From: Chloroflexota bacterium
GTDB taxonomy: Bacteria > Chloroflexota > Anaerolineae > Anaerolineales > Villigracilaceae
Direction of reading: 5' to 3'
Assembly: GCA_016235445.1 (NCBI GenBank)
Contig: JACRLB010000026.1
Coordinates: forward strand, 1-47,822
Length of the DNA: 47,822 nucleotides
Below, one piece after another: positions 258 through 21,019 of this stretch; positions within the stretch are counted from its first letter, which is position 1; every line of letters begins with the position of its first letter. The translations under genes and the position numbers were made by a program. A model generated the notes under the pieces. That model did no database searches. It was not told where the DNA came from and saw nothing but the letters and a program-made list of their open reading frames with translations.

Positions 258-1946
258 GTGGCAAAAATATACCCAGAACACTTACCAGAAAGTGTGATAA
301 GTGACCCTAAGAGACAGGCTGAAAGAAAGGTTTTCGAAACACTCTCAAAATTGGGCTCACCTTTTGTCGTTTTTTATAGTGTTGCCTGGCAAGCACGGAA
401 AGATGGTTATGCCCGTGATGGAGAAGCGGATTTTGTTATTGCTCATCCTGATTATGGCGTGTTGGTTCTTGAAGTAAAGGGCGGTGGCGTCGCGTATGAT
501 GCGACTACTGGACAATGGACAACTACTGACCGATACGGCGAATCTTTTGTCATTGACCCTGTGGAACAGGCGAAAAAGAGCCATTACATTTTGTTGGATA
601 AATTCAAAGACTTACCAGAGTGGGATAGCAATCGTTTTCTGACAATCGGACATGTCGTATGTTTCCCTGATGTGGTTGTAGACAATAAGCCGTTGCGATT
701 AGATTTATCGCGCGACATCGTGATTGACCACAATGGCTTGGAAAAAATCGAAGAAAAGATTCAGCGCATATTTGAACATTATGCCGAGAAGACCAGGCGA
801 GCACCTCTGGGCAGGGATCGTCTGGCAATTGTCGAGTCTTTGTTAGCACGGTCTTTCAAGATGACCACTCCTCTGGGTGTGGAGTTGGATAGGGAAGATA
901 AAAAGCTGATTGATCTGACCGAAAGGCAATTCATATTGCTCAATTTCCTTGCTTCGCGTCGTAGGGCTTTGATCGCTGGATGCGCAGGTTCGGGAAAAAC
1001 CATGCTGGCTGTCGAAAAAGCGCACCAACTTCACGAACAGGGATTCAATGTTCTTCTTACTTGTTTTAATGCAGCGCTGGCAGATGACCTGGCTCAGAGA
1101 TTGCCAGAAATAAGCGTTTTACATTTTCATGGATTGTGCAAGGAATTGGCTGGGCAAGCAGGCTTTGCCATTCAGTCTGCAAAAAGCGAACAGGAATACA
1201 ACGAGGTTGTGCTTCCTGATATGCTGATGAAAGCCGTGGACGAGACGGGACCGATGTTCGATGCCATTATTGTGGATGAAGGTCAGGACTTCAAGGAAAC
1301 TTACTGGATTGCGCTTGCCAGCTTATTGAAAGAGAAGGAAGGCATTTTCTATGTTTTCTATGATGACAATCAAAATCTATACGGCGGCACTTCATCATTA
1401 AAAGGTATTGTTGATGAAGAGCCGTTTTTACTGCCTGAGAATTGCCGAAATACAAAATCAATCCATAAAGTGGTAAATGCTTTTTACAGTGGGCGCTCTC
1501 GAATTACTTGTAATGGTCCGCAAGGCAGGACGCCTGAACTACATACTTATCGAGACTCGGCAGAAATGGTCAAGGGCATACAGAGTGTTCTGAATAAACT
1601 AATCAATGAAGAACACGTGCCAATAGAGGATGTTGTGATTTTGACTCCGCATGCACAAGAGCGAAGTATGCTGAAAGCAGGATCAAAACTCGGCAATTTT
1701 AGCCTGACCTCCAACCCACCCCAGCGCAGGAATGAAATTCAAGCAACAACCATCCACCGCTTCAAGGGTTTGGAGCGTAAGGTGGTTATTCTCGCGGAAA
1801 TAGACAGCAAATTCATGTACAATCCAGAGATACTTATGTATGTGGGAAGTTCCCGTGCTCGAACGCACTTATTGTTTTTTGTTGACCAGAACGCGCCAGC
1901 CGAAATAAAATCTCAGATCGAAACCGCTTGCAAGCCAATCCGATAA
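258..1946 (+). CDS. NERD-domain nuclease-like / UvrD-type helicase fusion
   Basis: A 562-residue protein starting at GTG 258 with AAGGA upstream. The N-terminal third is a NERD (nuclease-related) domain: D58 and E72-V-K74 form a PD-(D/E)XK-like core, with Glu residues in the preceding helix. A superfamily 1 helicase follows, with Walker A GCAGSGKT near residues 241-248, motif II DEGQDF near 340 (usually DEAQD) and UvrD C-terminal motifs (TIHRFKGLE and VGSSRART). It probably unwinds and possibly cuts DNA. It is the first gene of a six-gene + strand operon; its 3' end is 17 bp from the start of the ATPase gene. NERD helicases are recurrent partners in defence islands. Domain assignment is strong; nuclease activity is inference. 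Confidence 0.85.
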   Translation: MAKIYPEHLPESVISDPKRQAERKVFETLSKLGSPFVVFYSVAWQARKDGYARDGEADFVIAHPDYGVLVLEVKGGGVAYDATTGQWTTTDRYGESFVIDPVEQAKKSHYILLDKFKDLPEWDSNRFLTIGHVVCFPDVVVDNKPLRLDLSRDIVIDHNGLEKIEEKIQRIFEHYAEKTRRAPLGRDRLAIVESLLARSFKMTTPLGVELDREDKKLIDLTERQFILLNFLASRRRALIAGCAGSGKTMLAVEKAHQLHEQGFNVLLTCFNAALADDLAQRLPEISVLHFHGLCKELAGQAGFAIQSAKSEQEYNEVVLPDMLMKAVDETGPMFDAIIVDEGQDFKETYWIALASLLKEKEGIFYVFYDDNQNLYGGTSSLKGIVDEEPFLLPENCRNTKSIHKVVNAFYSGRSRITCNGPQGRTPELHTYRDSAEMVKGIQSVLNKLINEEHVPIEDVVILTPHAQERSMLKAGSKLGNFSLTSNPPQRRNEIQATTIHRFKGLERKVVILAEIDSKFMYNPEILMYVGSSRARTHLLFFVDQNAPAEIKSQIETACKPIR

Positions 1947-1963
1947 ACTCAGGAAACAGACTT

Positions 1964-4900
1964 ATGAAGTATCGAGACTTAATTCAGTTCGAGCCAGTCG
2001 TTGATGTGATCCAACTTCGCCAGGCGGATGAGAAAAAACGTGCCGAGAAGTTGGTTTCGACTTATGTGATTTCCGACCGCATGACGGATGTGATTTTGCA
2101 CCGCATTCTGCCCAGCCTGAGCATTGGCGGCGAAAAACCAGGCGATGGGCTGTTCATTGTCGGCAACTATGGGACGGGTAAATCTCACTTGATGTCCATC
2201 GTTACAGCGATTGCCGAGCACAAGGATTTATTGAAGTACGTGACTCATCCAGCAGTGGTGGAGGGATTAAAGCCCATAGCAGGGAAATACAAGGTTGTGC
2301 GTCAGGAAACAGGGGCTACTGAGAAAAACCTGCGTGATATTGTTCTCGAAGACTTGGAGAAACACCTAAAAGAAATAGGCGTGAAATATCACTTTCCATC
2401 TATGAAAGAGGCTGCAAGTAATAAAGATTTAATTGTTGAAATGATGGGAATATTCCAGAAGATTTATCCTGGCTATGGTTTACTAGTGGCAATGGATGAA
2501 TTGCTGGATTATCTGCGTGGAAGGAAAGATACTGAGTTAGCCCTGGACTTGAATTTCCTGCGGGAAATTGGCGAAGCTTGCGAGATCACTCCGTTTCGAT
2601 TTATAGCAGGCATTCAAGAATCCTTGTTTGACAGCCCACGCTTCCAATTTGCGGCAGATTCGATTCGACGTGTGAAAGCGCGGTTTGAACAAGTGCGCAT
2701 CGTCCGTGAAGATATGGCATATGTGGTCTCGCGCAGATTACTTGGCAAGAACGATCAACAGCGAAAACAGATTCGTAAACACCTTGAAAAATTCACAAAA
2801 TTATATGCCGAAATGGCAGAGCACATTGATGAATATGTGGAACTTTTCCCTATTCATCCTGCTTATTTGGAAGTGTTTGAACAAGTTACTGTTGTAGAAA
2901 AGCGCGCACTGCTGAAGGCTATCAGCAAGCAAATGGAGAGTTTGCTTGACCAAGATGTACCTGCTAATGAGACAGGACTATTTTCGTTTGATTCTTATTG
3001 GGAAATCTTGAATGATGATCCATCCTATCGCTCCGTGCCAGAGATTCGAGATGTGCAGGATAAGGCACGAGTGCTTAGTGAGCGTGTTCGGACTGCGCCG
3101 AATGTCAAAGATTATCGACCTGCTGCAAACAAAATCATCGCGGCGCTCGCTGTTCATCGTTTGACATTGAATGATATTTACGCGCCTGTTGGTTTGACGC
3201 CTGCGGAGTTACGTGATCGTTTGTGTATCTACCTACCTATCCCCGAAGCGGATGCTGACTTTCTTCTAACATCGGTTGAAGCTGTATTGCAGGAAGTCTC
3301 CCGCGCGGTGAATGGACAGTTCATCTCGCATAACGCGGAGAACGATCAGTATTATCTTGACCTGAAAAAAGATATTGACTTCGATGCGTTGATTGATCAG
3401 CGTGCCTCATCATTGGATGATACACAACTGGATCGCTATTTCTTCGATATGCTGGCGCGCGGATTGGAATTGACCGATAGCGCTTACGTGCCAGGCTTCC
3501 GCATTTGGGAGCGTGAACTGGCATGGACTGGACAGGGCATGACCCGCAAAGGATATGTCTTTTTGGGTGCGCCGAACGAACGCTCGACCGCACAGCCTGA
3601 GCGCGATTTCTATATTCACTTCCTTGCGCCATTTTCAACTGCCAAGACCAAATTGGACAAGAAGCCAGATGAAGTGTACTTCTCGCTTGGACAGAAAGAT
3701 GATGATTTCGAGCAGACGATGAAGCGTTATGCTGGAGCGCGTGAGATGAGTTCTATATCATCGGGGAGCAATAAAGAACAGTACGAGCGTAAGGCAGACA
3801 CATTTGTCCGAAAGCTGAACACCTGGCTGCGCGAGAACATGACGCGGACAATCGTCATTCGCTTTAGGGGCGAAGAGATGACCGTGCCAGAAGCATTGTC
3901 GAAACATCGCCTGTCCATTCGTGACCTTTCTTTACGCGAACAGGTTTTCAAACTTGCTTCGGCGTTTTTGAGCGAGCAATTTGAAAAGAAGTATCCGCTT
4001 TATCCGAAATTTAGCGGGATTGACTTCACCTTTGAGACATTGACCCAAGCCGTGGATGGCACGTTGCGCGCAATTGCGGGAAGTTCCGCCACCAAGCCTG
4101 CGCAGGTTGTGTTGGAAGGATTGGGACTCGCTCATATGGAAAACGGCGAGTTGACCTTCACCACCGAAGACAGCACGTATGCAAAGCATGTCTTGAAATC
4201 TTTGTTTGCGTTGGATGCTGGAAAAGTTTTGAACCGCAAGGATTTGATTGGCGGACCGAACAACGCGGAAGTGGATCTCAAATTTGGACTGGAGCCTGAA
4301 TGGATGATGGTGGTTTTGCTCTCGTTGGTGAGACAAGGCGAGATGACGCTGAATCTGCCTGGGATCAGAATCGATTCGACCAATCTGGATGAGGCGGCGC
4401 GGATGGGCGTGGATACGCTGGTGAAGTTCACAGCGGTCAGCCGCCCGAAGCCAATCCCCGAACAATCTCTGCGGGTGTTGTTTGCCAGCCTTGACCTGCC
4501 CGAAAATTTGGTGACCGATTCCAAGAAACTGGAACTGGCTCCTATTCAGTTGGAAGCGTCTGTCAGCGCGGAGTTGAATCAGGTTGTGCGCTTGTTGGAA
4601 AACCTGCGCGAAGGTCCACGCTATTGGCGTGATTCACTGTATTCGGCGGCGATGTTGCAGGAATTGCGCAGTGAGTTGACCGAGTACAAGAATTTTCTCA
4701 CTTCGTTGCAGGCGCTGAATACGCCTGGCAAGTTGCGCAACTTCTCCACGGGGCAAGGTGAGGTGCGTCAGGTGATGCGGACGCGGAAAGTGGTGGGCGA
4801 GATCAAAGCCTTGTATGAGTTGATCCAAGCCGTGCAGCCGCAGTTGGATTACATCTATCAGGCGGAAGTAACTTTGCCGCTGGATGACGCGTGGCAGAAG

Positions 4901-5668
4901 TCGATTGAAAAAACGCGCGCGGAACACTTGAAACTGTTAGCCACACCTGCCGAGCGGACAAAGCCCGCCACGATCTCACGCCTGAAAGGCGGACTCTCCA
5001 ATTTGCAGGACGCCTACGTGAAGCGCTATGCGGAACTGCACGCCTTTGCGCGGTTGGACTCGTCGCTCGACGCGCAGAAAAAGCGCGTTTCGGCAGACCC
5101 GAAATGGGTCCAGTTGCGAGCGCTGAGCGGACTCGACTTTTTGCAGGGAAATGATCTGCGCAAGTTGGAATCCCAGATGGGCGAAGTCCGCTCGTGTCCC
5201 AATCTGAATCCGAAAGATATGCAATTCACGACCGTTTGTCCCGCTTGTGGATATATGCCGCGCACGCAGGGCGTTGAAAAATCGGCGGGGCAGCAATTGC
5301 GTGAAGCGACCGAAGTTTTGGACGGTTTGCATAAGCAATGGATCAATGCGTTGATCGCCAGTTTGAAGAGTGAGAGTTCACAGAAGAACTTGAAGATGTT
5401 GGGCACGAAGGAACGCGAGCAGGTGAATGAGTTCCTGCAAAAGAAGCAACTACCCGAAAAGATCACAGACCGCTTTATTTCGGCGTTGAAGGATACTTTG
5501 CAGGGACTGGAGATCGTCGAGTTTGAGGGCAGCGACTTTTTGCTGGCGCTCACCCGCCCTGGAATGCCCTGCACGCCCGAAGAACTGAGCGCGCGGTATC
5601 AAAAATTCCTTGCCGAACACATGCAAGGCAAAGACCCAGCCAAAGTCCGAATCCGTATTGATTGGTAA
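1964..5668 (+). CDS. large P-loop ATPase resembling DUF6079 / BrxC-PglY
   Basis: A 1234-residue protein. I choose ATG 1964 (MKYRDLIQFEP) because AGGAAAC precedes it; the frame is open back to 1928 but that part overlaps the helicase gene. Walker A GNYGTGKS lies at residues 68-75 and a Walker B-like GLLVAMDELLDYL around 173-185. A helical middle follows, then a Cys cluster near residues 1078-1095 (C...CPACG) that looks like a zinc ribbon. Size, an N-terminal ATPase starting 'M.YRDLI.FEPV..VIQL' and the methyltransferase neighbour fit DUF6079 proteins, relatives of the BrxC/PglY ATPases of BREX and Pgl. It is the likely energy-using core of the system. No PglZ-like partner is seen. Confidence 0.75.
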   Translation: MKYRDLIQFEPVVDVIQLRQADEKKRAEKLVSTYVISDRMTDVILHRILPSLSIGGEKPGDGLFIVGNYGTGKSHLMSIVTAIAEHKDLLKYVTHPAVVEGLKPIAGKYKVVRQETGATEKNLRDIVLEDLEKHLKEIGVKYHFPSMKEAASNKDLIVEMMGIFQKIYPGYGLLVAMDELLDYLRGRKDTELALDLNFLREIGEACEITPFRFIAGIQESLFDSPRFQFAADSIRRVKARFEQVRIVREDMAYVVSRRLLGKNDQQRKQIRKHLEKFTKLYAEMAEHIDEYVELFPIHPAYLEVFEQVTVVEKRALLKAISKQMESLLDQDVPANETGLFSFDSYWEILNDDPSYRSVPEIRDVQDKARVLSERVRTAPNVKDYRPAANKIIAALAVHRLTLNDIYAPVGLTPAELRDRLCIYLPIPEADADFLLTSVEAVLQEVSRAVNGQFISHNAENDQYYLDLKKDIDFDALIDQRASSLDDTQLDRYFFDMLARGLELTDSAYVPGFRIWERELAWTGQGMTRKGYVFLGAPNERSTAQPERDFYIHFLAPFSTAKTKLDKKPDEVYFSLGQKDDDFEQTMKRYAGAREMSSISSGSNKEQYERKADTFVRKLNTWLRENMTRTIVIRFRGEEMTVPEALSKHRLSIRDLSLREQVFKLASAFLSEQFEKKYPLYPKFSGIDFTFETLTQAVDGTLRAIAGSSATKPAQVVLEGLGLAHMENGELTFTTEDSTYAKHVLKSLFALDAGKVLNRKDLIGGPNNAEVDLKFGLEPEWMMVVLLSLVRQGEMTLNLPGIRIDSTNLDEAARMGVDTLVKFTAVSRPKPIPEQSLRVLFASLDLPENLVTDSKKLELAPIQLEASVSAELNQVVRLLENLREGPRYWRDSLYSAAMLQELRSELTEYKNFLTSLQALNTPGKLRNFSTGQGEVRQVMRTRKVVGEIKALYELIQAVQPQLDYIYQAEVTLPLDDAWQKSIEKTRAEHLKLLATPAERTKPATISRLKGGLSNLQDAYVKRYAELHAFARLDSSLDAQKKRVSADPKWVQLRALSGLDFLQGNDLRKLESQMGEVRSCPNLNPKDMQFTTVCPACGYMPRTQGVEKSAGQQLREATEVLDGLHKQWINALIASLKSESSQKNLKMLGTKEREQVNEFLQKKQLPEKITDRFISALKDTLQGLEIVEFEGSDFLLALTRPGMPCTPEELSARYQKFLAEHMQGKDPAKVRIRIDW

Positions 5669-5674
5669 ACAAAC

Positions 5675-8479
5675 ATGCCGAGAAAAAAGCAGAACGACGC
5701 CGAACAACCCGAATTGATCGCGGAAGAAGCCGCGGAGTATATCGTCTCGCCTGATGAAGAAGCGCTGCGCGAAGAATATCGCAGGCGGCTGGCGGAGATG
5801 TTGAAAGACCCCGAGTTTCGCAAGATCGAGGGATTTCCCATCGGTGAAGATGAAGCGATTCTCGCGCTTTCTGACCCGCCTTACTATACGGCTTGCCCCA
5901 ACCCGTTCTTGAATGAAATCGTGGAAAAATGGCGCAGTGAACGCGCGGCATTGCGTGATGAATTAGGCTTGCCCAGCGATGAACCTGCGGGGAGCAAATA
6001 CATCGTCCGCGAAAATATGCCGACCAAAAATTATCACCGTGAACCTTTTGCGGCGGATGTTTCGGAAGGCAAGAACGACCCGATCTATAACGCGCATTCG
6101 TATCACACCAAAGTTCCGCATAAAGCCATTATGCGCTACATTCTGCATTACACCGGCCCTGGCGATGTGGTTATGGATGGATTCTGTGGCACAGGCATGA
6201 TGGGGATTGCCGCTCAACTGTGTGGTGATAAAAAAACTGTAGAAAGTCTCGGCTATATAGTGAAGGATGGCATAGTCTACGATCAAAATAGCAAGCCCAT
6301 TTCCCGAATTGGCACACGTAAAGCAACACTTATTGATCTTTCCCCTGCTGCAACATTTATTGCTTATAACTACAATGCTCCTGTTGAATCTCGGGCATTC
6401 GAACGTGAAGCCAAACATATTATCAAGAAAACTACAGATGAGCATGGTTGGATGTATGAAACCAACCATGAAGACCAAAAGACCATAGGAAAAATAAATT
6501 TCACGATTTGGTCTGACGTGTTTATTTGTCCTACTTGTGGACATGAAATGGTTTTTTGGGATGTTGCTGTTAATAAAGAAACGGGGGAAGTTTTAGACGT
6601 GTGGAATTGTACTGGATGTTCCTCTTTACTTTCTAAACGCCGCGGAAAAAATATAGGTGCTCAAATAGTGGAAAGGGCACAAGAAACTTATTTTGATAGA
6701 GTAATTGGGAAGCCCGCAAAGCGTGCAAAGCAAGTGCCCGTTCTATTGAATTACTCGGTAGGTAATACTCGTTTTGAAAGGAAACCCGATCAAAATGACA
6801 TTATTTCTATTCAGAAAATAAATGAACTGGATTGTCCTTACTGGTGTCCAGTTACAAGAATTGATCGTGATATTGATCTTTGGTACGAGCGTGACTATAG
6901 AACTTTAGGGATTTATACAATTGATGCTTTTTATACAAAGCGCAACTTATGGTTACTAGCCTCTCTTTGGGGTAAATGCGCAGATATAGCCGATCGCCGC
7001 TTGGCAAATTTCTTGCGTTTTACATTAACTGGAATGCAAGTCAACTTAAGCCGCATGAATCGTTGGCGTGCAAATGTTTCTTTTCCTTACAACCCATTGA
7101 GCGGCACGCTTTATGTAGCAGGTTTGCAATCTGAAGCAAATGTTTTTACTGGTATTGCCAATAAAGCAAAAAGATTGGTGAAGATAGTTGCACCCTTGAA
7201 ATTAAGCCAGAATAATACAGTGATAACAACTCGTTCTCTGTCTAGTAACACAGCCATATTGTCCAAAAATTCAATAGACTACATTTTCACTGACCCTCCT
7301 TTTGGTAGCAATATCATTTACTCAGACTTAAGCATGATTTGGGAGTCGTGGCTAAATTTATCAACAAACGCAGCAAAAGAAGCAGTCATTCATCGGAGAA
7401 AAAAGAAAGACGCAACAACGCTTGATGGTTATCGTAACATTATGGCAAATGGTTTTGTCGAAATGTTCCAAGCACTAAAGCCTGGAAGATGGATGACCGT
7501 CGAGTTTCATAATTCTCAAAATTCTGTCTGGAATGCGATCCAAGAGGCTATTATGCAGGCTGGGTTCGTTGTAGCAGATGTGCGTACCCTAGATAAACAA
7601 CAAGGGACTTTCAAACAAGTTACAACCTCTACTGCTGTCAAGCAAGATTTGATTATTTCTGCTTACAAGCCAACAGATGAATTTGAAAAACGCTTTATCT
7701 CTGAAGCAGGAACAGAGCAGGGTGCTTGGGATTTTATGAGGCAACATCTGGAACAACTACCGTTGCCAAACATCAAAGACGGTGCATTAGAAACTTTACA
7801 GGAGCGCCTTCCTTATTTACTTTATGATCGCATGGTGGCGTTTCATATCCAGCGTGGCTTAACCGTTCCGCTTTCATCGCCTGAGTTTTATCAAGGTTTG
7901 AGTCAACGGTTTTTGGAACGTGAAGGCATGGTCTTTACCGCCGCACAAGCCGCCGCCTATGATAAGTTACGTCTGCAAGCCGAACGCGTCGAGCAGTTGG
8001 CGTTGTTTGTCACGGATGAAAGTTCCGCCCGTCAATGGCTGCGTCAGGAATTGGAGCATGAGCCGAAAACATACGGCGATCTCCAGCCGAAATTTGTCCA
8101 ACAGTTACACCAGTCCAAGTATGAAGACCTGCCCGAACTCAAGGTCATTTTGGAACAAGCCTTCTTGCAAGATGAAAAAGGACATTGGTATGTCCCAGAC
8201 CCAGAGCGCGCCGCAGACCTTGAAAAATTACGTCAAAACGCATTATTGCGCGAGTTCAACGAATATCGTAAAGGCAAAGGTCGCCTGAAAGTCTTCCGCA
8301 GTGAAGCCGTCCGCGCAGGTTTTAGCAACGCCTGGCGTGAGCGTGAGTACGATGTCATTGTCGAGATCGCCGAGCGTATGCCCGAGTCTGTGCTACAGGA
8401 AGATCAACAGTTGCTGATGTACTATCACAACGCTGGGCTGCGTCAGTCCAGTGAGCCGAGACAAGAAAAACTACTCTAA
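5675..8479 (+). CDS. DNA methyltransferase of the defence operon (amino-methylating type)
   Basis: A 934-residue protein, ATG 5675, six bases after the ATPase stop. A DPPYYTACPNPF segment lies at residues 67-78, the SAM-binding motif I DGFCGTGM near 168-175, a Cys4 zinc ribbon (CPTC...CTGC) near 288-318, and a second catalytic-type motif FTDPPFGSN near 540. Motif I before DPPF, with about 370 residues between, suggests an alpha-like order with the target-recognition region between them. It should methylate adenine N6 or cytosine N4, marking self DNA for the system. Base composition shifts sharply inside the gene: single lines at 5941 and 8281 are 57% and 60% GC, but lines at 6541 and 7201 are 37% and 35%. 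This suggests exchange of the central specificity region. Confidence 0.85.
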   Translation: MPRKKQNDAEQPELIAEEAAEYIVSPDEEALREEYRRRLAEMLKDPEFRKIEGFPIGEDEAILALSDPPYYTACPNPFLNEIVEKWRSERAALRDELGLPSDEPAGSKYIVRENMPTKNYHREPFAADVSEGKNDPIYNAHSYHTKVPHKAIMRYILHYTGPGDVVMDGFCGTGMMGIAAQLCGDKKTVESLGYIVKDGIVYDQNSKPISRIGTRKATLIDLSPAATFIAYNYNAPVESRAFEREAKHIIKKTTDEHGWMYETNHEDQKTIGKINFTIWSDVFICPTCGHEMVFWDVAVNKETGEVLDVWNCTGCSSLLSKRRGKNIGAQIVERAQETYFDRVIGKPAKRAKQVPVLLNYSVGNTRFERKPDQNDIISIQKINELDCPYWCPVTRIDRDIDLWYERDYRTLGIYTIDAFYTKRNLWLLASLWGKCADIADRRLANFLRFTLTGMQVNLSRMNRWRANVSFPYNPLSGTLYVAGLQSEANVFTGIANKAKRLVKIVAPLKLSQNNTVITTRSLSSNTAILSKNSIDYIFTDPPFGSNIIYSDLSMIWESWLNLSTNAAKEAVIHRRKKKDATTLDGYRNIMANGFVEMFQALKPGRWMTVEFHNSQNSVWNAIQEAIMQAGFVVADVRTLDKQQGTFKQVTTSTAVKQDLIISAYKPTDEFEKRFISEAGTEQGAWDFMRQHLEQLPLPNIKDGALETLQERLPYLLYDRMVAFHIQRGLTVPLSSPEFYQGLSQRFLEREGMVFTAAQAAAYDKLRLQAERVEQLALFVTDESSARQWLRQELEHEPKTYGDLQPKFVQQLHQSKYEDLPELKVILEQAFLQDEKGHWYVPDPERAADLEKLRQNALLREFNEYRKGKGRLKVFRSEAVRAGFSNAWREREYDVIVEIAERMPESVLQEDQQLLMYYHNAGLRQSSEPRQEKLL

Positions 8480-8497
8480 TCAATAGGGCGGAAAATT

Positions 8498-11400: not shown

Positions 11401-12298
11401 TGAAAATGAAAACGACCCACCTATTGTTTTTCATGCCCTGCGCGAATTGGCAAAGAAAAGAGATCATCGTTTTCTGGATGTGATTGCAAAAATGCTAGAG
11501 GCTGGACGCCTGTCAGATGCAGATGCCATAGAATTACTCAGGCTGGAAGAAGAACATTTTGTCTCAGCATTGAACTCCAGCCAACCTGTCGGAATTAATT
11601 TACGATTATTGTCTGGCTTGTTGCGCGATAAAGATAAATTACTTGATACGCTTTCCAACGAGAAAATATTCGGCCTCGCAAAAGCAGAGCTGGATACACA
11701 GTCAATCAAGAAATATCTCGGTATTTTGATTGAGCGCGAGGATAAGCATGGCTTGGAATACATTATGGAACTTTTTCAAAACGGGCGTTTGCTCGGCGAA
11801 GAAGTGACTGAATTGTTATGTAGAAATCCCAAATTCTCGACCCGTGTTCTATCGCATGCGCCGCAGACACATGCGAATTCAATTCAATTATCCGAAATAG
11901 CGCTAAGATTCTCATTTGAAACGGGACATGTGTCGAAAGATATGTTTGTTAAAACGCCAGCAGGCTGGGGGAGAATTTATCTGATAGTAGATGCGGCTGG
12001 ATCTGAAGTGAAAATTGCTTCAAAAGACGATGTGCATATCAAGTACCATGTCGTCCTGTATGAGAACACGGAACATCAGTTAAAAGCGATTATTGATGTT
12101 AAAGATGAAAGTTTTAAAATGCTTAATGCAGGCAATTATTTCCAATGTGGAAGTTGTACTTTTATATCCTACGATCAAAAGATTATAGTAAGCCAACATA
12201 CAAAAGAGAAACATTCTGGCGTAAGCCCTTCGTTCAAGCCAGTTTCATCCCGAATGGCTGTTCGCGGTGAATTGCAATTCAGCAAATCAAACCCTTAA
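8498..12298 (+). CDS. large defence-operon protein of unknown family with C-terminal C2H2 finger
   Basis: A 1266-residue protein I cannot place in a named family. Start ATG 8498, 18 bases after the methyltransferase. The first ~250 residues look helical; about residues 260-800 are rich in alternating hydrophobic strands with short polar turns, which suggests stacked beta-sandwich domains; from ~840 it is again helical and charged. Near residues 1217-1240 it carries C-x2-C-x13-H-x4-H preceded by YFQ (FQCGSC...QHTKEKH), the layout of a classical C2H2 zinc finger, rare in bacteria. No nuclease, ATPase or PglZ motif is visible. Position between methyltransferase and helicase suggests a structural or DNA-recognition subunit; that is inference. 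Confidence 0.7.
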   Translation: MSRTLKQWEAYLVGAMPRIQLLSELGLNYEDMLEIANLIKGENAKRSSLRQTTTYLVGNFPCTFVAFLAAFAAQNTEREFWDALGRLLDVSGSDLNNANWRKPFIEILKNNKKPTFENVGHLYVGNMRIHGGIPSYSLRDFFANMLMPTIEKSEYIELKGKELLDALLRRSVVQLFTDSTIRNFFEFSGDIGLEFLESSRRVALAYRSKRQILPDHALPEYVVQKLVSFLEYQEDEVHGLRRPRIKFDADGEGLLLELPEEPLSGSDVRGNQVRWQVSQNQKQLKELRARIIRSGRDIHTEQQIIPLGYMIEPFQVTFSVPKQDGEFNLLREWTFELRSQDAPDLLAFRTEDASLLRWSQALPAQNFLLVHPKDISLEFEGDARLIYTPDIYAEGWHNWKAEHRSFEGAFSLSLVKNGETLAVIPIQKQLELPRLTGNLFTPNLDSKPLYVGNPPALRIPLRPGTTVENELKRWHVEINSAWEAEPHCRQSFKLIEKPEAITEDESAIELNLTAILGSEPKGTYTLHVRGPLETDVEIPFRVWPSLHIKDLPEFILPPEDKNVTLHFAVPVHASLETQASVTGVNVTGQYGQYTVELDETASRLDLNLVWSLETSAIHVPFSLPVPRIEWRFVLGEEDKFEWSNRPIRKPVDAFLQSNQTAALLVRMPGIEKHTRQMIVRLIDPEKPKDFLQEFPVQPSVLGSDHVRFALSAKDTIRQHTDISVFEFQLLIPNAEGLYQSVTLLSLTRDIDVSNVHIKETDEGLFLLWDESSPLRNRRVFIRSIWKPWADAWNIKIPDDARGKFDLLAAGYGLPPSWYEIHFYVAPSWEKDITSAPEHSTFVVKMISPEEQIAWLEGNLEKRPENSFVNHFERACVYVNTLDVSRCKQEVQFCYTHIEQAKPRDLFAFHEWLEKHEPTTRRAVRMKMYNLEQLRRLFSMHKPGSEFRQKYQSYIPETNIKPESAILLVENENDPPIVFHALRELAKKRDHRFLDVIAKMLEAGRLSDADAIELLRLEEEHFVSALNSSQPVGINLRLLSGLLRDKDKLLDTLSNEKIFGLAKAELDTQSIKKYLGILIEREDKHGLEYIMELFQNGRLLGEEVTELLCRNPKFSTRVLSHAPQTHANSIQLSEIALRFSFETGHVSKDMFVKTPAGWGRIYLIVDAAGSEVKIASKDDVHIKYHVVLYENTEHQLKAIIDVKDESFKMLNAGNYFQCGSCTFISYDQKIIVSQHTKEKHSGVSPSFKPVSSRMAVRGELQFSKSNP

Positions 12299-12313
12299 AA
12301 ATAAGAGGATCCT

Positions 12314-15300
12314 ATGGCAATCCACCCGCTTGATACCACCAATCATATCCGCCAAACCTATCTACGCTATTTAAAAACGATCAAGCCATTTCAAGATGAA
12401 GGTTTTCGTAAAGCCTTCGCAGATGCTATTGACGTACCAAATTTATTGGTAAAAGGTCCGTTAGTTGAGATTGCTTTACCATACAGAAAAGGTAAAAGCA
12501 TTAAGGGTTTGGTGGAAGAAGGTGTCCTATCGCCAAAATTCGCCGAATTAAATTCACCTGATCTACCTTATGATCGTCCGCTTTATTCCCACCAAGTTAA
12601 GGCAATCAGAAAGGCTGTTGCGGGCAGGAATTTAGTTGTCGCAACAGGTACTGGCTCTGGAAAAACAGAGACCTTCCTAGTTCCCATTTTGAATTACCTT
12701 TTCAGGGAAGAGGAAGCGGGAACGTTGAGCCAACCTGGTGTCCGTGCCATGTTGCTCTATCCAATGAACGCGCTAGCGAACGATCAAATGAAACGTTTGC
12801 GCCGGCTTTTGGAAAACTATAAAAAAATCACCTTCGGTCGCTATATCGGAGAAACAGATACTTCTGGTGATAGAGAAAAAGCACTAAAGTCTTTCAAGGA
12901 TATTTACCCGCAGGAAAAGACTTTAGATAATGAGTTATTTACCCGCAAGGAAATGCAGGAAAACCCGCCTCACATACTATTGACCAACTATGCCATGTTG
13001 GAATATTTGCTTTTGCGTCCAGCAGATTCATCGTTGTTTGATGGTCCTACAGGGAAATCCTGGCATTTTATCGCGCTTGATGAAGCACATGTCTACGATG
13101 GAGCCAATGCCACTGAAATGGCAATGCTTCTACGTCGCGTTGTTGATCGTGTTGTTGGCGCTCAACTGGGTAAGTTGCAAGTCATTGCCACCAGTGCGAC
13201 TCTTGGGGGCGGCAGGAAGGATTTTCCAGAGGTTATACAATTTGCCATTAATCTTTTCAACAAGGATTTTGCCTGGGTGGATGATGATCCCAACTTGCAG
13301 GATATTGTGGAAGCAGATCGTGTACCAATTGAGAATCTTGGCGAAATCTGGGGCGCAGGAAATCCTGCTCTCTATGCAGAATTGGCAGAGCTGGTAGAAA
13401 AACGTCCGTCCGACAACACAGCGGTCATTGGCTATCTCGCCAAATTTGATGCGTTGTTTCAAAAGCATAAAATACCCGCTCCTCTTCAAAGCGCTAATGA
13501 TGAAGCAAAAAAAGAAATATCTGCCGCATTACAGCGTTATCTTTATGAAATCCTGCGTGGCGACAAGAATGTTCATGCAGTATTAAATTCCCTCAAAGAA
13601 AAGAACGCCCGTCAACTGGAAGATATTGCAAGGGATGTATTCCCCAATGCCTCTGACGCCCCCGAGGCGTTGATTAACCTCGTCACCTTATCTGTCTTTG
13701 CACGCGCAGATTTGGAGAGTATGCCGCTTCTGCCCGCCCGTTATCATGTCTTTGCCCGCGCGCTGGAAGGCGCTTTTGTCTGCTTGAATGAAGACGCTCA
13801 CAAAGATCTTCCTGCCGAAAAACGCGAACGGTTGTTCCTGCACAGACAAAAATATTGTCCTCACTGCAAAAGCCGTGTTTTTGAATTAGCAACCTGTACT
13901 CGTTGCGGCACTGCCTATTTGATCGGAGAGGAAAAGCCCGGTAGTGAGATGGAAAGCGATAAAGATGGTTTTGTGCCAATCCAGAGCGCAAATTATTTGC
14001 TCCAAAATAGCGCAATTTACAGCACGGCGGTGGCAAAGAAAACGCACTACTACACAGTTATTTCCAAGTTTTCTGAAATAGATGAAGATGAGATTATCGC
14101 GGATCAAGACGCCACTCCTGACGATCTAAATGAGAATTTACAGCCTAACGAACTTCAATTATGCTGTTCGTGTGGACAAATCCAACCTCATGGTAAGCGT
14201 ATTTGTGATTGCAAAGACTCGCTTATAAAAATAAATGAGGTGGAACTGGGTCGAAAACAAACCTTGCACCGATGCATTAGTTGCTCTACAAGATCCAGCG
14301 GTGGAGTCGTTTATCGCTTCCTTACAGGACAGGATGCCCCGGTCAGTGTTCTAGCGGATGCTTTATATCAGCATATCCCTGCCTCAAAAGCAAAAGACAA
14401 AGATGATCTACCTGGTCATGGTCGAAAGATGTTGAACTTTACGGACAGCCGGCAAAACGCCGCCTTCTTTGCGCCCTACCTTGAACGCGCCCATGAGCGA
14501 AATCTGCGCCGCAGGTTAATCATGATTGCTCTCAAAAAAGACCCAGAAGCAAATAAGGGGCAACTCCGTTTGCATACGGTTATGGAGCGTTTGAGATATC
14601 GGATTGATCAGGAAAATGTATATCCATCAAACGAAACCTTTAATGATAAAGAACATCGCGCTGCAGTGTGGATGATGCAGGAATTTTCTCCTTTGGATCG
14701 CCGAATTAGCCTGGAAGGACTCGGCTTGCTGCGATTTGAACCTGATATCCCTGAAAGCTGGGATATGCCTGATTTCCTTCAATCAGGCCCGTGGAACTTT
14801 GATCGTGAACAAGCCTTCCGCCTAATCGTGAATTTACTGAATACATTGCGATATCAAGGCGCTATTACTTATTTGTTAAACGAAAAAACGGATTTACTTC
14901 ATGACTCCAAAGACAAAGGGTCCCCTTTTGCGCCGCGAGAAAAAGAATATTATGTTAGAGGAGCTGACAGCGTAGCAAAGAAAGGAATTTTTAGTTGGAC
15001 GCCCGCGGCTCATGCCAATGCACGCCTCAATTACTTGAAACGGATTCTTGCTGAAAAAAAGTATCCAGAATTAAATGCCAATGACGTCGCCAAAGATTTA
15101 CTAGCTGAAATTTGGAAATACTTAACTTCACCATCTAGCCCTTGGCGTAGCTGCTTTGAGAGTAGAGACATACCAGGGATAGGAACTGTCCAACAACTAT
15201 CGCATAAAGTATGGAAGGTTGTTCCAACGAATGATGATTATTCTGGTTGGAAGATTTGCGATAAATGCCAGAATATTACATTTGGAGATGTTGAAAAAGT

Positions 15301-17320
15301 TTGCGCTACTTATGGCTGCTCAGGTCATCTTGAACAATTAACAGAGAAATCTATTGGATTTAAAGATAATTTGTATCGTGATGAATATGTAAACAGCGAC
15401 CCCAATAACCAGCCTACCGTTCTCCTTGCAAATGAACACACTGCACAATGGACTTCGCGCGAAGCAGCAAATGTCCAGAACCAATTTATTCAAGGCAATG
15501 TGAATGTTTTGAGCTGCTCCACCACCTTTGAATTAGGTGTTGACGTTGGTGACTTGCAAGCAGTTGTCATGCGGAATATGCCCCCCACGACTGCGAATTA
15601 CATACAACGAGCAGGGCGTGCAGGTCGTCGCACAGATTCTGCGGCATACGTGTTGACTTTTGCTCAAAGACGCTCTCACGATCTAAATTATTTTACTCAG
15701 CCCGAAAGTATGGTTTCGGGAAAAATTAAACCCCCGATAGCGGTTCTTTCAAATGAAAAAATTGTTCGTAGGCACCTCCATTCTATAGTCTTTTCCGCAT
15801 TTTTCCGCTGGGTATTTGAGAATTACGGACGAAAATTCGATAATGTTGGAGATTTCCTACTGGATGAAAACGGTGAGAAAGGGATTGACCTACTTAATAA
15901 ATTCCTGGAACAAAGACCGATAGAACTTCAGGAAGCTCTTGTTAGGGTTATTCCAGGCGGGCTAGTGGATAATCTCGGAGCAAAAGACTGGACCTGGATA
16001 AACGAGTTAACAGCGCCAACTGGCGCTAAGCCAAAGTCTCTTGATTTGGCAGCACAAGATTTTTTGAGTGAAGTCAATAAGTTGATCGAACTGAGTGACG
16101 AAGCTCAGTCTAAAAAAGATAAAAAAGGGCTATTGGAAGCTGTCAGGCTACTAGACATTGTTAAGCAAATCAAAGAGAGAAAATTGCTTGGCTTCCTTGG
16201 AGCAAGAAATGTTCTCCCTAAATACGGCTTTCCCACAGATGTTGTTGAATTAAAAACAAATCATCTTACGACTAAAGAGGCTTCAAAAGTTCAACTGGAG
16301 CGCGATTTACGAATGGCGATATCTGAGTTTGCACCTGGAAGTGAAGTTGTTGCCGCAAAAAGAATCTGGCGTAGTCGTGGAGTTCGATTGCTGCCTAACA
16401 AGGTTTGGGAAGAAATCCATTATGCAGTTTGTAAACAATGTAAGAGATTTCATTGGGGATATGCCGAAACGGATGTGCCTCCAATATGCGCGTCCTGTGG
16501 GGAAACGCTTTCTGGAAACACTGAAATGAAAGGAAAGTTTATTGTCCCAGAACAAGGATTTGTAGCAGCGAGCGAAACTGAAACTCCAGGTGAAACTGCT
16601 CCTCAAAGAACATATGCTAGTCAAGTATATTTTACCGAGTATAGATCTTCGAAAGATGATCAAGATGAAGAAAAAGAATTAATTATTGACGAGAAATTAA
16701 CCTCTTCAAACCTCACTGTATTTACCGGTCATTCCAATCATGGTTGGCTTGCCTTGGTTAATAATGGTTTCGGTCGCGGCTTTAGGATTTGTAATTGGTG
16801 CGGCTGGGCAGAACCAGTTCCATTAACGTCTGGAATAAAAGATACGAATAAACATAATAATCCTTTGACAGGAAAGCCTTGTAATGGAGGCGCCAAACCA
16901 TATCACTTGGGGCATAGATTTATGACTGATGTGCTTGAAATCAGCCTTGATGGAAAAGAAAAATTCTTATATCGGCGTTCTTCGATGATGTCTTTGATGT
17001 ATGCTTTACTAGACGGCGCTAGCGACGCTTTGGGAATTCGTCGTGACGATGTGGATGGTACTCTCTTCTATAAGGATTTTCGCAAGCCGCCTCACCTGAT
17101 CCTTTACGACACAGTCCCTGGAGGCGCTGGCCATGTGGAACGGATTAATAACAAATTATTCCAGGTAGCAGAGTCTGCACTGAAAAAGGTTTCCAATTGC
17201 GAATGTGGCGAGGATACAAGTTGTTATAATTGCCTTCGTAACTACCGGAATCAGTTCTATCACGACGATTTACAGCGCGGTATGGCGATTAAATTACTGG
17301 AAGTGATGTTGAATAAATAG
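12314..17320 (+). CDS. giant DEAH-box helicase with C-terminal DUF1998 (DruE/DrmA-DrmB/MrfA-like)
   Basis: A 1668-residue superfamily 2 helicase, ATG 12314 after AGAGGATCCT. Walker A GTGSGKT is near residues 111-117, DEAH at about 254-257, and helicase C-terminal motifs near 1070-1105 (FELGVDVGDL and QRAGRAGRR). At least four Cys clusters occur: CPHC...CTRCG, CCSCG...CDCKD, CDKC...CATYGC and CKQC...CASCG. The C-terminus has VPGGAGH followed by CECGEDTSCYNCLRNYRNQ, the Cys4 signature of DUF1998 as in MrfA and DISARM DrmB. Length and the helicase-DUF1998 arrangement also resemble Druantia DruE. It probably translocates on DNA as the motor of the system. GC falls in the 3' half. The stop is immediately followed by the next start. 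Confidence 0.85.
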   Translation: MAIHPLDTTNHIRQTYLRYLKTIKPFQDEGFRKAFADAIDVPNLLVKGPLVEIALPYRKGKSIKGLVEEGVLSPKFAELNSPDLPYDRPLYSHQVKAIRKAVAGRNLVVATGTGSGKTETFLVPILNYLFREEEAGTLSQPGVRAMLLYPMNALANDQMKRLRRLLENYKKITFGRYIGETDTSGDREKALKSFKDIYPQEKTLDNELFTRKEMQENPPHILLTNYAMLEYLLLRPADSSLFDGPTGKSWHFIALDEAHVYDGANATEMAMLLRRVVDRVVGAQLGKLQVIATSATLGGGRKDFPEVIQFAINLFNKDFAWVDDDPNLQDIVEADRVPIENLGEIWGAGNPALYAELAELVEKRPSDNTAVIGYLAKFDALFQKHKIPAPLQSANDEAKKEISAALQRYLYEILRGDKNVHAVLNSLKEKNARQLEDIARDVFPNASDAPEALINLVTLSVFARADLESMPLLPARYHVFARALEGAFVCLNEDAHKDLPAEKRERLFLHRQKYCPHCKSRVFELATCTRCGTAYLIGEEKPGSEMESDKDGFVPIQSANYLLQNSAIYSTAVAKKTHYYTVISKFSEIDEDEIIADQDATPDDLNENLQPNELQLCCSCGQIQPHGKRICDCKDSLIKINEVELGRKQTLHRCISCSTRSSGGVVYRFLTGQDAPVSVLADALYQHIPASKAKDKDDLPGHGRKMLNFTDSRQNAAFFAPYLERAHERNLRRRLIMIALKKDPEANKGQLRLHTVMERLRYRIDQENVYPSNETFNDKEHRAAVWMMQEFSPLDRRISLEGLGLLRFEPDIPESWDMPDFLQSGPWNFDREQAFRLIVNLLNTLRYQGAITYLLNEKTDLLHDSKDKGSPFAPREKEYYVRGADSVAKKGIFSWTPAAHANARLNYLKRILAEKKYPELNANDVAKDLLAEIWKYLTSPSSPWRSCFESRDIPGIGTVQQLSHKVWKVVPTNDDYSGWKICDKCQNITFGDVEKVCATYGCSGHLEQLTEKSIGFKDNLYRDEYVNSDPNNQPTVLLANEHTAQWTSREAANVQNQFIQGNVNVLSCSTTFELGVDVGDLQAVVMRNMPPTTANYIQRAGRAGRRTDSAAYVLTFAQRRSHDLNYFTQPESMVSGKIKPPIAVLSNEKIVRRHLHSIVFSAFFRWVFENYGRKFDNVGDFLLDENGEKGIDLLNKFLEQRPIELQEALVRVIPGGLVDNLGAKDWTWINELTAPTGAKPKSLDLAAQDFLSEVNKLIELSDEAQSKKDKKGLLEAVRLLDIVKQIKERKLLGFLGARNVLPKYGFPTDVVELKTNHLTTKEASKVQLERDLRMAISEFAPGSEVVAAKRIWRSRGVRLLPNKVWEEIHYAVCKQCKRFHWGYAETDVPPICASCGETLSGNTEMKGKFIVPEQGFVAASETETPGETAPQRTYASQVYFTEYRSSKDDQDEEKELIIDEKLTSSNLTVFTGHSNHGWLALVNNGFGRGFRICNWCGWAEPVPLTSGIKDTNKHNNPLTGKPCNGGAKPYHLGHRFMTDVLEISLDGKEKFLYRRSSMMSLMYALLDGASDALGIRRDDVDGTLFYKDFRKPPHLILYDTVPGGAGHVERINNKLFQVAESALKKVSNCECGEDTSCYNCLRNYRNQFYHDDLQRGMAIKLLEVMLNK

Positions 17321-18040
17321 ATGTTCACATATCTTGTAGGTTTTGATCGGTTCATCGCCCTTGATTGGGCGAATTACGCGCTGGAGTTGTCTTTGCATTC
17401 TGAGAACAAAGATTCCTCAGTCTCTCAACTGAAATCATGGTTATCCTCGCGAGTTTCTGGAAACGATGCTATTCGTAAAACATCAAACGTTCTTGGAAGA
17501 TTGTGGTTTGATGCAAATGAAGAAAAGGGTTACTTTAGAACAGAAGCTCATCACATAAACCAAGTTGCCAAGAAGTCCGATAATGTCATATTCCATTGGG
17601 GAATGGCAATATTAACCTTTCCTTTTTTTCACGAAGCTTGTTTTCAGGTCGGGCGTTTGCATTCACTACAAACATCTTTTACGCGCCAAGAAATTCATGT
17701 TCGAATGGCAGAAAAATATAGCAACCAAGGAACTGTTCCAAGATCAATAGATCGAATATTACAAAGTCTTGTAGATTGGAAATTACTCGAAAAAGTTTCT
17801 GCTAGAAATTTAAGCAGTCAACATCACAAGACCGCCGATGATCGTGTAAAAAGGTGGCTACTAGAATTAATGGTGTATTCTACTCAGCAAAAGAGAATAC
17901 CTCTTAATAGCTTTTATAAACTACCTGAGCTATTTGCCTTTGAATTCAACGGTGATGTTGCCCATATAGCGAACTCATCAAAGAAAGTAAAGATTGAAAG
18001 GGACGGCGGAAATATGGAGTATATAAGCTGGCGTTATTAA
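17321..18040 (+). CDS. small winged-helix-like protein, last gene of the defence operon
   Basis: A 239-residue protein whose ATG 17321 follows the helicase stop codon with no gap, so it is probably translated by coupling. No named family is recognised. Residues ~125-170 (FTRQEIHVRMAEKY...PRSIDRILQSLVDW) read as a helix-turn-helix followed by a wing, as in winged-helix DNA-binding domains. The N-terminal part, SWLSSRVSGNDAIRKTSNVL, is helical and could be an adaptor. BREX and other defence operons often carry a small helical or wHTH protein (BrxA/BrxR type), but I see no specific match. A role as DNA-binding accessory or regulator is inferred from position only. Confidence 0.65.
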   Translation: MFTYLVGFDRFIALDWANYALELSLHSENKDSSVSQLKSWLSSRVSGNDAIRKTSNVLGRLWFDANEEKGYFRTEAHHINQVAKKSDNVIFHWGMAILTFPFFHEACFQVGRLHSLQTSFTRQEIHVRMAEKYSNQGTVPRSIDRILQSLVDWKLLEKVSARNLSSQHHKTADDRVKRWLLELMVYSTQQKRIPLNSFYKLPELFAFEFNGDVAHIANSSKKVKIERDGGNMEYISWRY

Positions 18041-20736: not shown

Positions 20737-20973
20737 CTAATGCTCTTTGTCTTGAGGGGGATTGGGGTCGTTGCCATATGAATCATGGCTTTGGATTGTT
20801 CCGTCCTTGCGTTGAGTAATAACATTTACTTTGTTGTTTTTCCCAACCTGACGTCCTTTTTCCTCAGCCTCGGCTTTTGTAGGTGTTACAACAATGCTTC
20901 GTTGAGCCTTTTCTCGCTTGACAGCCCATCCACCCTTGTGTGGAACGATCCAGATATTGCCTTTCTTAGCCAT
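20737..20973 (-). CDS. DUF2188-like small protein
   Basis: A 78-residue protein. I choose ATG 20973 (MAKKGNIWIVPHKGGWAV) because AAGGAAAGGC precedes it, although the frame is open back to 21099. The pattern IWIVPHKGGWAVKREK..RSIVVTPTKAEAEEKGR is typical of DUF2188, a short beta-alpha fold found in mobile elements and defence contexts. It is the first gene of the CD-NTase operon and is followed directly by the 107-aa gene through a TAGGAGG stop/ribosome-site overlap. A large inverted repeat lies 47-88 bp upstream of the start. Function is unknown. Confidence 0.6.
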   Translation of the reverse strand: MAKKGNIWIVPHKGGWAVKREKAQRSIVVTPTKAEAEEKGRQVGKNNKVNVITQRKDGTIQSHDSYGNDPNPPQDKEH

Positions 20974-21019
20974 TATGCCTTTCCTTGCTCGTAAAGCCAA
21001 TTTAGAACAAATGTTGCCG

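What the first reader, a model, noticed from the sequence alone, without database searches (positions are those of the whole stretch)
258..18040. Six-gene operon combining BREX-, DISARM- and Druantia-like parts without matching any of them
In one direction, with gaps of 0-18 bp, lie a NERD-UvrD helicase, a DUF6079/BrxC-PglY-like ATPase, a DNA methyltransferase, a 1266-aa unknown, a 1668-aa helicase-DUF1998 protein and a small wHTH-like protein. BREX would need PglZ and DISARM would need separate DrmA/DrmB with a PLD nuclease; neither is seen. The methyltransferase plus two helicases imply self/non-self discrimination with DNA translocation. It could be a known but rarely described variant.
Basis: partly seen in the sequence, partly recalled or inferred. 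Interest (0 to 1): 0.8.

Follow-up and report, generated by a model that had tools for sequence, protein, structure and literature searches.

The report
BREX-Druantia hybrid defence operon without PglZ
Some Chloroflexota bacteria carry a six-gene set, kept in the same order in seven genomes, that appears to join the self-marking half of one anti-phage system (BREX) to the attack half of another (Druantia), without the protein thought to define BREX.

Summary
The exact order recurs in seven genomes, the window's included, of seven genera in two families (two copies nearly identical). NERD-helicase lies upstream in 12 of 12 readable loci whose BrxC is at least 48% identical, but in 0 of 11 fetched loci at 42% or less. 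PF08665 finds no PglZ in any of the seven genomes; BrxF is absent from all seven operons. X sits beside the helicase in 72 of 80 loci from many phyla. Its N-terminal domain is distantly related to DruH and keeps W and GG positions that E. coli DruH needs. In G657, X-DruE stands beside PglZ and BrxA, which suggests insertion, then loss of PglZ and BrxF. PglXI varies most in its middle third, as expected if its DNA target changes. I read it as a BREX-derived restriction-modification system with Druantia-type restriction parts. None of my literature searches found it described. Function is untested.

The parts
258..1946 (+). NERD nuclease - UvrD-like helicase (562 aa, GTG start)
   Evidence: Pfam NERD 44.5 bits and UvrD-type domains; PADLOC RTasNERD-Hel 7.5e-92. 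GExDF at 55 and EVKGG at 72, conserved in 7 of 7 sequences aligned (window included); Walker A GCAGSGKT at 241.
1964..5668 (+). BrxC AAA+ ATPase (DUF6079); likely ATG start at 1964 (ORF listed from TTG 1928)
   Evidence: DUF6079 1263 bits, BrxC 1410.8 bits; Walker A GNYGTGKS.
5675..8479 (+). PglXI/BrxXI adenine-N6-type DNA methyltransferase (934 aa)
   Evidence: PglXI 1177 bits; DGFCGTG at 168, DPPF at 540, CxxC at 285 and 312; against G660, 50-aa blocks at 301-600 are 28-50% identical, 201-300 62-64%, the rest 72-100%.
8498..12298 (+). X: DruH-like protein (1266 aa). Residues 1-240 helical, 240-845 tandem beta-sandwich domains, then TPR-like helical repeat and a C-terminal CxxC...H...H zinc-finger-like motif
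   Evidence: No family hit; relatives adjacent to the helicase in 72 of 80 loci; HHalign to DruH E 5e-6 and 1.9e-7, controls no better than 0.049; two models, mean pLDDT 88.9 each.
12314..17320 (+). DruE-like YprA-family SF2 helicase with MZB (DUF1998) domain (1668 aa), no C-terminal nuclease domain recognised
   Evidence: DruE1 709.6 bits; DEAD, Helicase_C, MZB; GTGSGKT at 112, DEAH at 256, QRAGRAGR at 1098.
17321..18040 (+). BrxA, DNA-binding BREX component (239 aa)
   Evidence: PADLOC BrxA 1.3e-43; 26-50% identical in the six other operons.

Best explanation
A type-3-BREX-derived restriction-modification system whose restriction half was exchanged. BrxC, PglXI and BrxA are the retained marking module: BrxC assembles on DNA, PglXI methylates a sequence chosen by its internal target-recognition region, and BrxA contributes DNA contact. 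The DruH-like protein X senses infection (probably a phage protein or an abnormal DNA complex) through its fast-evolving beta-sandwich array and links to the complex through its C-terminal repeat and zinc finger. The DruE-like helicase then loads on unmarked or ssDNA-containing phage replication intermediates and translocates, and the NERD domain of the UvrD-type helicase cuts, doing the job of PglZ. Shown here: gene content, order, conservation, clustering of the set in trees, no PglZ found with PF08665 and no BrxF found, domain folds as models, the X-DruH relation of one domain, and where PglXI varies. Inferred: anti-phage function, methylation, the sensing role of X, the nuclease role of NERD, and any physical coupling of the two halves.
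For: Same six-gene order in 7 genomes: G000, G608, G850, G906, G785, G660 (same contig and coordinates as G859) and G662 (as G944). In 400 genomes of the order, 13 BrxC places are at least 48% identical; 7 are the complete set, 6 are not; NERD-helicase lies upstream in 12 of the 12 whose upstream side is present. Of 15 places at 42% or less I read 11: 0 of 11 have NERD-helicase, X or DruE and 11 of 11 have BrxF; 8 of these 11 show at least 1.5 kb upstream of BrxF and 6 reach past PglXI, so the test is full only there. PglXI of the four operons in the tree forms one clade (SH-aLRT 99) next to type-3 PglXI; BrxC of four operons plus G657 and G345 forms one clade (99/100). PglZ 0 of 7 genomes; BrxF 0 of 4 genomes tested and, with PglZ, 0 of 7 operons even at E 1e-3 on short ORFs. 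G657 has X-DruE-PglZ-BrxA on one contig and NERDhel-BrxF-BrxC-PglXI on another. PglXI variation concentrated in residues 301-600. Near-identity of the whole block between G608 and G850. NERD motif conserved.
Against: No functional data at all. In type 1 BREX, PglX needs BrxB and PglZ to methylate (PMC13326643 and PMC9122589, passages seen), so a BREX without both might not methylate by that route. X-DruE also lives alone in close relatives (L064, L066, L122 inside the same helicase clade), so the halves may work separately. On the helicase tree the BREX-linked label needs 5 changes and 46 of 500 shuffles do as well. G868 has NERDhel-BrxC-PglXI but no X in the last 1.5 kb of its contig; other genes follow. 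X-DruE with BREX genes also occurs outside that clade (G633), so joining happened more than once or was shuffled. PglXI of G345 does not group with the six-gene PglXI although its BrxC groups with theirs. G657 has a second type-3-like contig (C99: BrxF-BrxC-PglXI start), so which contig joins X-DruE-PglZ-BrxA is open. The variable stretch of PglXI extends past the DPPF motif, so it is not only an insert. Homology of X to DruH covers about 110 residues.
Confidence: 0.6

Rival explanations
1. Two independent defence systems, a reduced type-3 BREX and a Druantia-III-like pair, interleaved in one defence island and inherited together without working together.
For: X-DruE-type pairs stand without BREX genes in most of the 80 loci and in three members of the same helicase clade. 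Defence genes cluster; a CBASS-like set lies next door.
Against: X-DruE sits inside the BREX gene order (between PglXI and BrxA) in all 7 operons with almost no spacer, and PglZ and BrxF are missing from those same operons, as if replaced.
Confidence: 0.17
2. An ordinary type-3 BREX: PglZ is present but unrecognised (very divergent, or X itself), so nothing has been replaced.
For: PF08665 detects some type-3 PglZ weakly (G961 1.4e-6, G870 7.3e-5), so a more divergent copy could be missed. X is large and unannotated; PglZ of type 1 also ends in an Ig-like domain (PMC12839542, section 18 read).
Against: The X model 1-845 is helical plus beta-sandwich with no alpha/beta phosphatase-like core visible in its secondary structure; G657 has X and PglZ side by side; X pairs with DruE in dozens of loci without BREX genes.
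Confidence: 0.08
3. Reverse logic, as proposed for Pgl (type-2 BREX): PglXI marks incoming or progeny phage DNA and DruE with NERD-helicase attacks marked DNA.
For: The genes alone do not tell which DNA is methylated; Pgl is the precedent (PMC12839542, passage seen).
Against: Strong variation in the middle of PglXI fits host-site marking at least as well; the same paper sees type-3 methyltransferases as marking self.
Confidence: 0.08
4. The set is not anti-phage but serves DNA repair or mobile-element maintenance; the YprA family includes the helicase MrfA.
For: YprA-family helicases include MrfA (PMC12458937, section 7 read; its role in repair is recalled).
Against: The recognised component families are from defence systems; X, BrxA and the middle of PglXI evolve fast.
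Confidence: 0.05

Closest known systems
Type-3 BREX (BrxF, BrxC, BrxXI/PglXI, BrxHII, PglZ, BrxA)
   Same: BrxC of DUF6079 type, PglXI with an internal 4-Cys motif, BrxA, and the order BrxC-PglXI-...-BrxA.
   Different: No PglZ, BrxF or BrxHII found; X and DruE-like helicase stand between PglXI and BrxA, and a NERD-UvrD helicase stands first.
Druantia type III (DruH-DruE) and the 'Druantia type III-like' branch of YprA helicases
   Same: DruE-like helicase immediately preceded by a large protein with a DruH-related N-terminal domain and Ig-like domains; helicase without a recognised C-terminal nuclease, as in most of the III-like branch (PMC12458937, section 8 read).
   Different: No PADLOC DruH model matches X or the relatives tested; the pair is embedded with a BREX methylation module.
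BREX-related (BR) types 1 and 2 (DUF499 ATPase, methyltransferase, helicase-nuclease)
   Same: Works like them on paper: BrxC-like ATPase, type-3-like methyltransferase and a helicase with a restriction-type nuclease instead of PglZ.
   Different: ATPase is DUF6079, not DUF499 (1263 against 14.7 bits); helicase is YprA/DruE-like, not Swi2/Snf2; the NERD nuclease is on a separate UvrD helicase; X and BrxA are extra.
ARMADA and TALON (YprA-centred systems)
   Same: YprA helicase with a BREX-type methyltransferase (ARMADA), or with a NERD nuclease in Chloroflexota (TALON).
   Different: No BrxHII-like helicase (ARMADA); TALON is described with TPR-cold-shock and TBP genes and an inactive RNase H at the helicase's C terminus, which are not recognised here (PMC12458937 sections 7 and 8 and passages; TALON sequences were not in hand).

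Membership tests
BREX type 3 | BrxC ATPase (DUF6079) | tested here: met
   1410.8 bits BrxC, 1263 bits DUF6079
BREX type 3 | PglXI/BrxXI methyltransferase with TRD insert and 4-Cys motif, no DUF1156 domain | tested here: met
   1177 bits PglXI, no DUF1156 Pfam hit, CxxC at 285 and 312, variable middle; the exact insert limits were not determined
BREX type 3 | BrxA | tested here: met
   1.3e-43
BREX (all types) | PglZ, called the defining component of all BREX | tested here: not met
   PF08665: 0 of 7 six-gene genomes; it does hit G657, G633, G749, G870, G812, G961. A very divergent copy is not excluded
BREX type 3 | BrxF (iSTAND) | tested here: not met
   0 of 4 genomes, 0 of 7 operons
BREX type 3 | BrxHII Swi2/Snf2 helicase | tested here: not met
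   The operon's SF2 helicase scores 709.6 for DruE1 against 82.6 for the best BrxHI/BrxHII model; 77% of type-3 systems carry BrxHII (PMC12839542, section 25, part 1 of 2 read), so this feature is not universal
Druantia type III | DruE YprA-family helicase | tested here: met
   DruE1 709.6, DruE3 648.1 bits
Druantia type III | DruH next to DruE | tested here: inconclusive
   No PADLOC DruH hit (6 and 7 relatives), but HHalign 5e-6/1.9e-7 over about 110 N-terminal residues and the right position
DISARM | separate DrmA and DrmB, PLD nuclease DrmC | tested here: not met
   Best DrmA 51.7 bits, far under DruE; helicase and MZB in one gene and no PLD domain in the six proteins
BREX-related (BR) systems | DUF499 ATPase | tested here: not met
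   DUF499 14.7 bits, cut-off 23
ARMADA | BrxHII-like helicase beside YprA helicase and PglX-like methyltransferase | tested here: not met
   No second SF2 helicase among the six proteins
TALON | NERD nuclease, TPR-CSD and TBP genes, YprA helicase with RNase H-like C terminus | tested here: inconclusive
   NERD present; no CSD or TBP hit in the six genes; TALON proteins were not available for comparison

The most novel reading that the evidence does not exclude
A BREX lineage that discarded PglZ and BrxB/BrxF, which in type 1 BREX are needed even for host methylation, and handed both licensing of the methyltransferase and restriction to a Druantia-type sensor-helicase pair plus a NERD nuclease-helicase. 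BREX marking and Druantia attack would then be interchangeable modules that plug into the same BrxC-BrxA scaffold.
Probability: 0.4. Interest if true: 0.85.

Novelty: new variant of a known kind. Interest (0 to 1): 0.72.

Why it matters
PglZ is described as a defining component of all BREX, conserved in nearly all BREX and related systems apart from BR types 1 and 2 (PMC12839542, sections 18 and 40 read). A conserved DUF6079-BrxC/PglXI set without a recognisable PglZ, with a relative in which X-DruE and PglZ stand together, turns two open questions into experiments: what BrxC and the methyltransferase need PglZ and BrxF for, and whether DruH-DruE restriction can be steered by DNA methylation. 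It also points to a large, fast-evolving DruH-like family next to DruE-like helicases in many phyla.

Tried and rejected
X as PglZ: rejected (no alpha/beta phosphatase-like core in the model; X and PglZ coexist in G657). X as a known PADLOC, Pfam or NCBIfam family: no hit. X on plasmids or in viral contigs, with the window's own X as query: none. Independent against single origin: the helicase tree (FastTree; alignment by FFT-NS-2) puts 5 of the 6 BREX-linked X-DruE pairs included in one 8-member clade (local support 100), but the label needs 5 changes; the BrxC tree does not resolve the six-gene operons against G657 and G345.

Control with PglXI: of 50 matched places in 36 of 396 genomes I fetched 20 regions, leaving out those of the window, G608 and G657 among others. 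X or DruE-like was found in 0 of 20; BrxF-BrxC-PglXI-PglZ-BrxA was complete in 6 (L160, L162, L163, L165, L171, L175); the others are cut by contig ends or arranged otherwise (for example L164, L167, L169, L176); L170 has NERDhel-BrxF-BrxC-PglXI and L169 a weak NERD-helicase match.

Rows dropped: the helicase tree omitted L014, L112 and L135 (under 1300 aa) and duplicates L010, L012, L047. The X alignment for HHalign kept 87 sequences: the window plus those over 900 aa and 200 bits. Alignment A4 used 44 sequences, the window and 43 of the 63 refs listed. Of 15 BrxC places at 42% identity or less, G860, G973, G843 and G1025 were not fetched. In one search, NERD-helicase rows of 60 bits or less were not printed. 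L159, whose DruH is cut short, was fetched but not used.

One search was this report in a wrong format.
Full report
THE OPERON. The window is contig 10 of a 4.13-Mb, 98% complete genome and starts at the contig's first base. Six ORFs of 562, 1246, 934, 1266, 1668 and 239 aa lie on the + strand from 258 to 18040. PADLOC and Pfam name them NERD-UvrD helicase, BrxC (DUF6079), PglXI, no hit, DruE-like helicase with MZB/DUF1998, and BrxA. The BrxC start is probably ATG 1964, 17 bp after gene 1.

CONSERVATION OF THE SET. A first search with gene 4 (X) in 301 genomes of the phylum matched 7 including our own; in the six others X lies just upstream of the helicase. A class-wide profile search matched X in 27 of 396 genomes, some only in the N-terminal part. 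One of these, G608 in another genus of the same family, has the same six genes in the same order. A scan of species genomes with the helicase alignment kept the best 80 of 572 loci; two of them, L065 and L110, show BrxC-PglXI-X-DruE-BrxA, and the NERD-helicase lies directly upstream of both.

CONTROL WITH BrxC. I then searched BrxC in 400 genomes of the order: 25 have a match, in 28 places. Identities split cleanly. Thirteen places are 48% or more. Seven are the complete six-gene set: G000, G608, G850, G906, G785, G859 (same contig and coordinates as G660) and G944 (as G662). Five are cut by contig ends: G749, G1001 (two contigs), G870 and G770; the last two keep BrxF. G868 shows NERDhel-BrxC-PglXI with no X in the last 1.5 kb of the contig. 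NERD-helicase is upstream in 12 of 12 where the upstream side is present. Of fifteen places at 42% or less I fetched eleven: 0 of 11 show NERD-helicase, X or DruE, and 11 of 11 show BrxF. The test is not complete for all: 8 of the 11 have at least 1.5 kb upstream of BrxF, and 6 reach past PglXI; L196 and L197 run on to PglXI, PglZ and BrxA as in type-3 BREX, L194 and L199 reach PglZ with further genes between, L195 and L202 carry two PglXI-like genes. The seven sets span seven genera in two families. G608 and G850 share about 20 kb, with the whole operon and most of a reverse transcriptase gene, at 99.98-100% DNA identity between flanks of about 89-95%, so the set has moved recently as a block, and these two count as one sequence.

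WHAT IS MISSING. PF08665 (PglZ) finds nothing in any of the seven genomes, while it finds PglZ in G657, G633, G749, G870, G812 and G961. BrxF is not found in four of four six-gene genomes tested, and neither BrxF nor PglZ in the seven operons down to ORFs of 40 aa at E 1e-3. PF08665 scores for some type-3 PglZ are low (1.4e-6, 7.3e-5), so a very divergent copy is not excluded.

RELATED ARRANGEMENTS. G657 has X (cut)-DruE-PglZ-BrxA on contig C233 and NERDhel-BrxF-BrxC-PglXI to the end of contig C251. That these are one operon is inferred, and a second type-3-like contig of the same genome (C99: BrxF-BrxC and the start of PglXI) makes the join uncertain; X-DruE beside PglZ and BrxA is certain. 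G870, G770 and G345 have NERDhel-BrxF-BrxC. G633 has BrxF-BrxC-X-DruE-PglXI, a different arrangement outside the helicase clade. Pieces of BREX genes lie upstream of X in L070 (BrxC), L108 (PglXI and PglZ) and perhaps L050 (25 positions of PglXI). In trees, PglXI of four six-gene operons forms one clade (SH-aLRT 99) next to type-3 PglXI, and BrxC of four operons groups with G657 and G345 (99/100), unresolved inside; PglXI of G345 groups elsewhere. The simplest history is a type-3 BREX that gained NERD-helicase, then X-DruE, then lost BrxF and PglZ; the order of steps is inferred and some mixing of genes is likely.

WHAT X IS. An iterated profile finds X in 77 of the 80 helicase loci, ending within 150 bp of the helicase match in 72, in Chloroflexota, Actinomycetota, Bacillota, archaea and others by record title. 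PADLOC's DruH models do not match X or 13 relatives tested. HHalign of the X family (87 sequences) with six DruH gives E 5e-6 in one direction and 1.9e-7 in the other, over about 110 N-terminal residues; 40 column-shuffled controls reach 0.51 at best and five other families 0.049 at best. The aligned region holds W81 and H-G-G-I-P (130-134) of X; in 44 sequences W81, F116, H130 and P134 are invariant and G132 and I133 at least 90%. The E. coli DruH of L156 carries the expected letter at all 14 positions named in the preprint, among them W88 and G136/G137, whose substitutions abolished defence (PMC13192584, passages seen); W88 and the GG pair are the ones that X shares in the alignment, the other positions were not assessed one by one and the R78/R79 pair is not evident in X. 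The AlphaFold2 model of X 1-845 (mean pLDDT 88.9) is helical to 240 and then beta-sandwich domains, resembling the described DruH layout with three Ig-like domains (same passages). The C-terminal part is a helical repeat followed by a CxxC...H...H motif. M. smegmatis DruH (PMC13316683, section 7 read, other passages seen) was not compared.

SIGNS OF FUNCTION. Between the window and G660, BrxC is 92% identical, NERD-helicase 81%, DruE 73%, PglXI 70%, X 64%, BrxA 50%. In PglXI the loss is concentrated in residues 301-600 (50-aa blocks at 28-50%), with 62-64% at 201-300 and 72-100% elsewhere; motif I is at 168, the 4-Cys motif at 285-315 and DPPF at 540, so the variable stretch covers most of the region between the motifs and runs somewhat past DPPF (one pair of sequences). 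That resembles replacement of a target-recognition region and argues that the enzyme is under selection for changing DNA specificity. The NERD motif GExDF...EVKGG is kept in 7 of 7 aligned sequences. A NERD-helicase also lies within about 0.75 kb of the DruE-like helicase without BREX genes in view in 7 of the 80 loci (L067, L077, L090, L095, L120, L123, L131; with positions); in L090 it is split over frames, and L077 and L123 lack an upstream X in view. So it may belong to the X-DruE module as much as to BREX.

MECHANISM. My reading is in Best explanation. The published facts that make it interesting are that PglX of type 1 BREX needs BrxB, BrxC and PglZ (in some systems BrxA) to methylate, and that BrxB, BrxC and PglZ form a core complex (PMC13326643, passages seen; PMC9122589, passages seen). 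Here BrxC and BrxA remain, while BrxF and PglZ are not found. Either type-3 PglXI can do without them or X/DruE stand in. Neither is shown.

NOVELTY. Full-text searches for DUF6079+BREX, BREX/Druantia/DISARM/hybrid/helicase/PglZ, TALON/ARMADA/BRIGADE/YprA, DruE+PglXI, BREX/Druantia/PglX/chimeric, DruH+sigma factor and PglXI/NERD/helicase/Chloroflexi list no description of this set, judged by titles and abstract starts except for the papers opened. The BREX survey PMC12839542 (sections 14, 18, 29, 33, 40 read; first parts of 25 and 35; passages elsewhere) does not contain the words Druantia, YprA, DUF1998 or UvrD, and the YprA preprint PMC12458937 (abstract, sections 7 and 8 read, passages elsewhere) contains neither BrxC nor DUF6079. 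Supplementary tables could not be read, and most subscription papers are outside the library, so an unlabelled mention there is possible. I rate it a new variant: the parts belong to or resemble known families, while the combination does not pass the tests of any family that I could test in full.

Noticed in passing
L010:8365-12396, L011:7363-11433, L012:8396-12430 (part of it in L013:10886-16033): X/DruH-like proteins next to DruE-like helicases carry a complete sigma-70 factor (regions 1.2, 2, 3 and 4, three proteins scanned) at the C terminus, a possible link from phage sensing to transcription. PADLOC labels it MzaA in all four.
   Followed up: partly
window 18159-20394: A CBASS-like set: NucC nuclease on + (3.2e-92), convergent with an E2-like protein (18893-19306) and a SMODS cyclase (19303-20394) on -.
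   Followed up: partly
window 20737-21099: A 120-aa protein matching the PADLOC candidate family PDC-S16 (2.9e-25).
   Followed up: no
window 21664-47471: Genes suggestive of a mobile or pilus-bearing element: DUF6094 methyltransferase-helicase, a CHC2 zinc-finger match just under its cut-off, SAF, CbiA/ParA and T2SSE proteins, and an IS4/IS5-type transposase.
   Followed up: no
L150:3973-5829: A reverse transcriptase gene (2e-52 to RT) about 260 bp upstream of the NERD-helicase on the same strand in G608; PADLOC calls this helicase family RT-associated. Most of it lies in the block shared with G850, where about 1.3 kb of extra DNA interrupts the match near its start.
   Followed up: partly
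L180:754-9456: A 2901-aa ORF with the X core at residues 1676-2493, next to a 1964-aa DruE-like helicase; the 1,675 residues before it are of unknown nature.
   Followed up: no
L050:11915-12052, L070:4984-5529, L108:240-1699: Apparent remnants of BREX genes (PglXI; BrxC; PglXI and PglZ) upstream of X-DruE pairs.
   Followed up: partly
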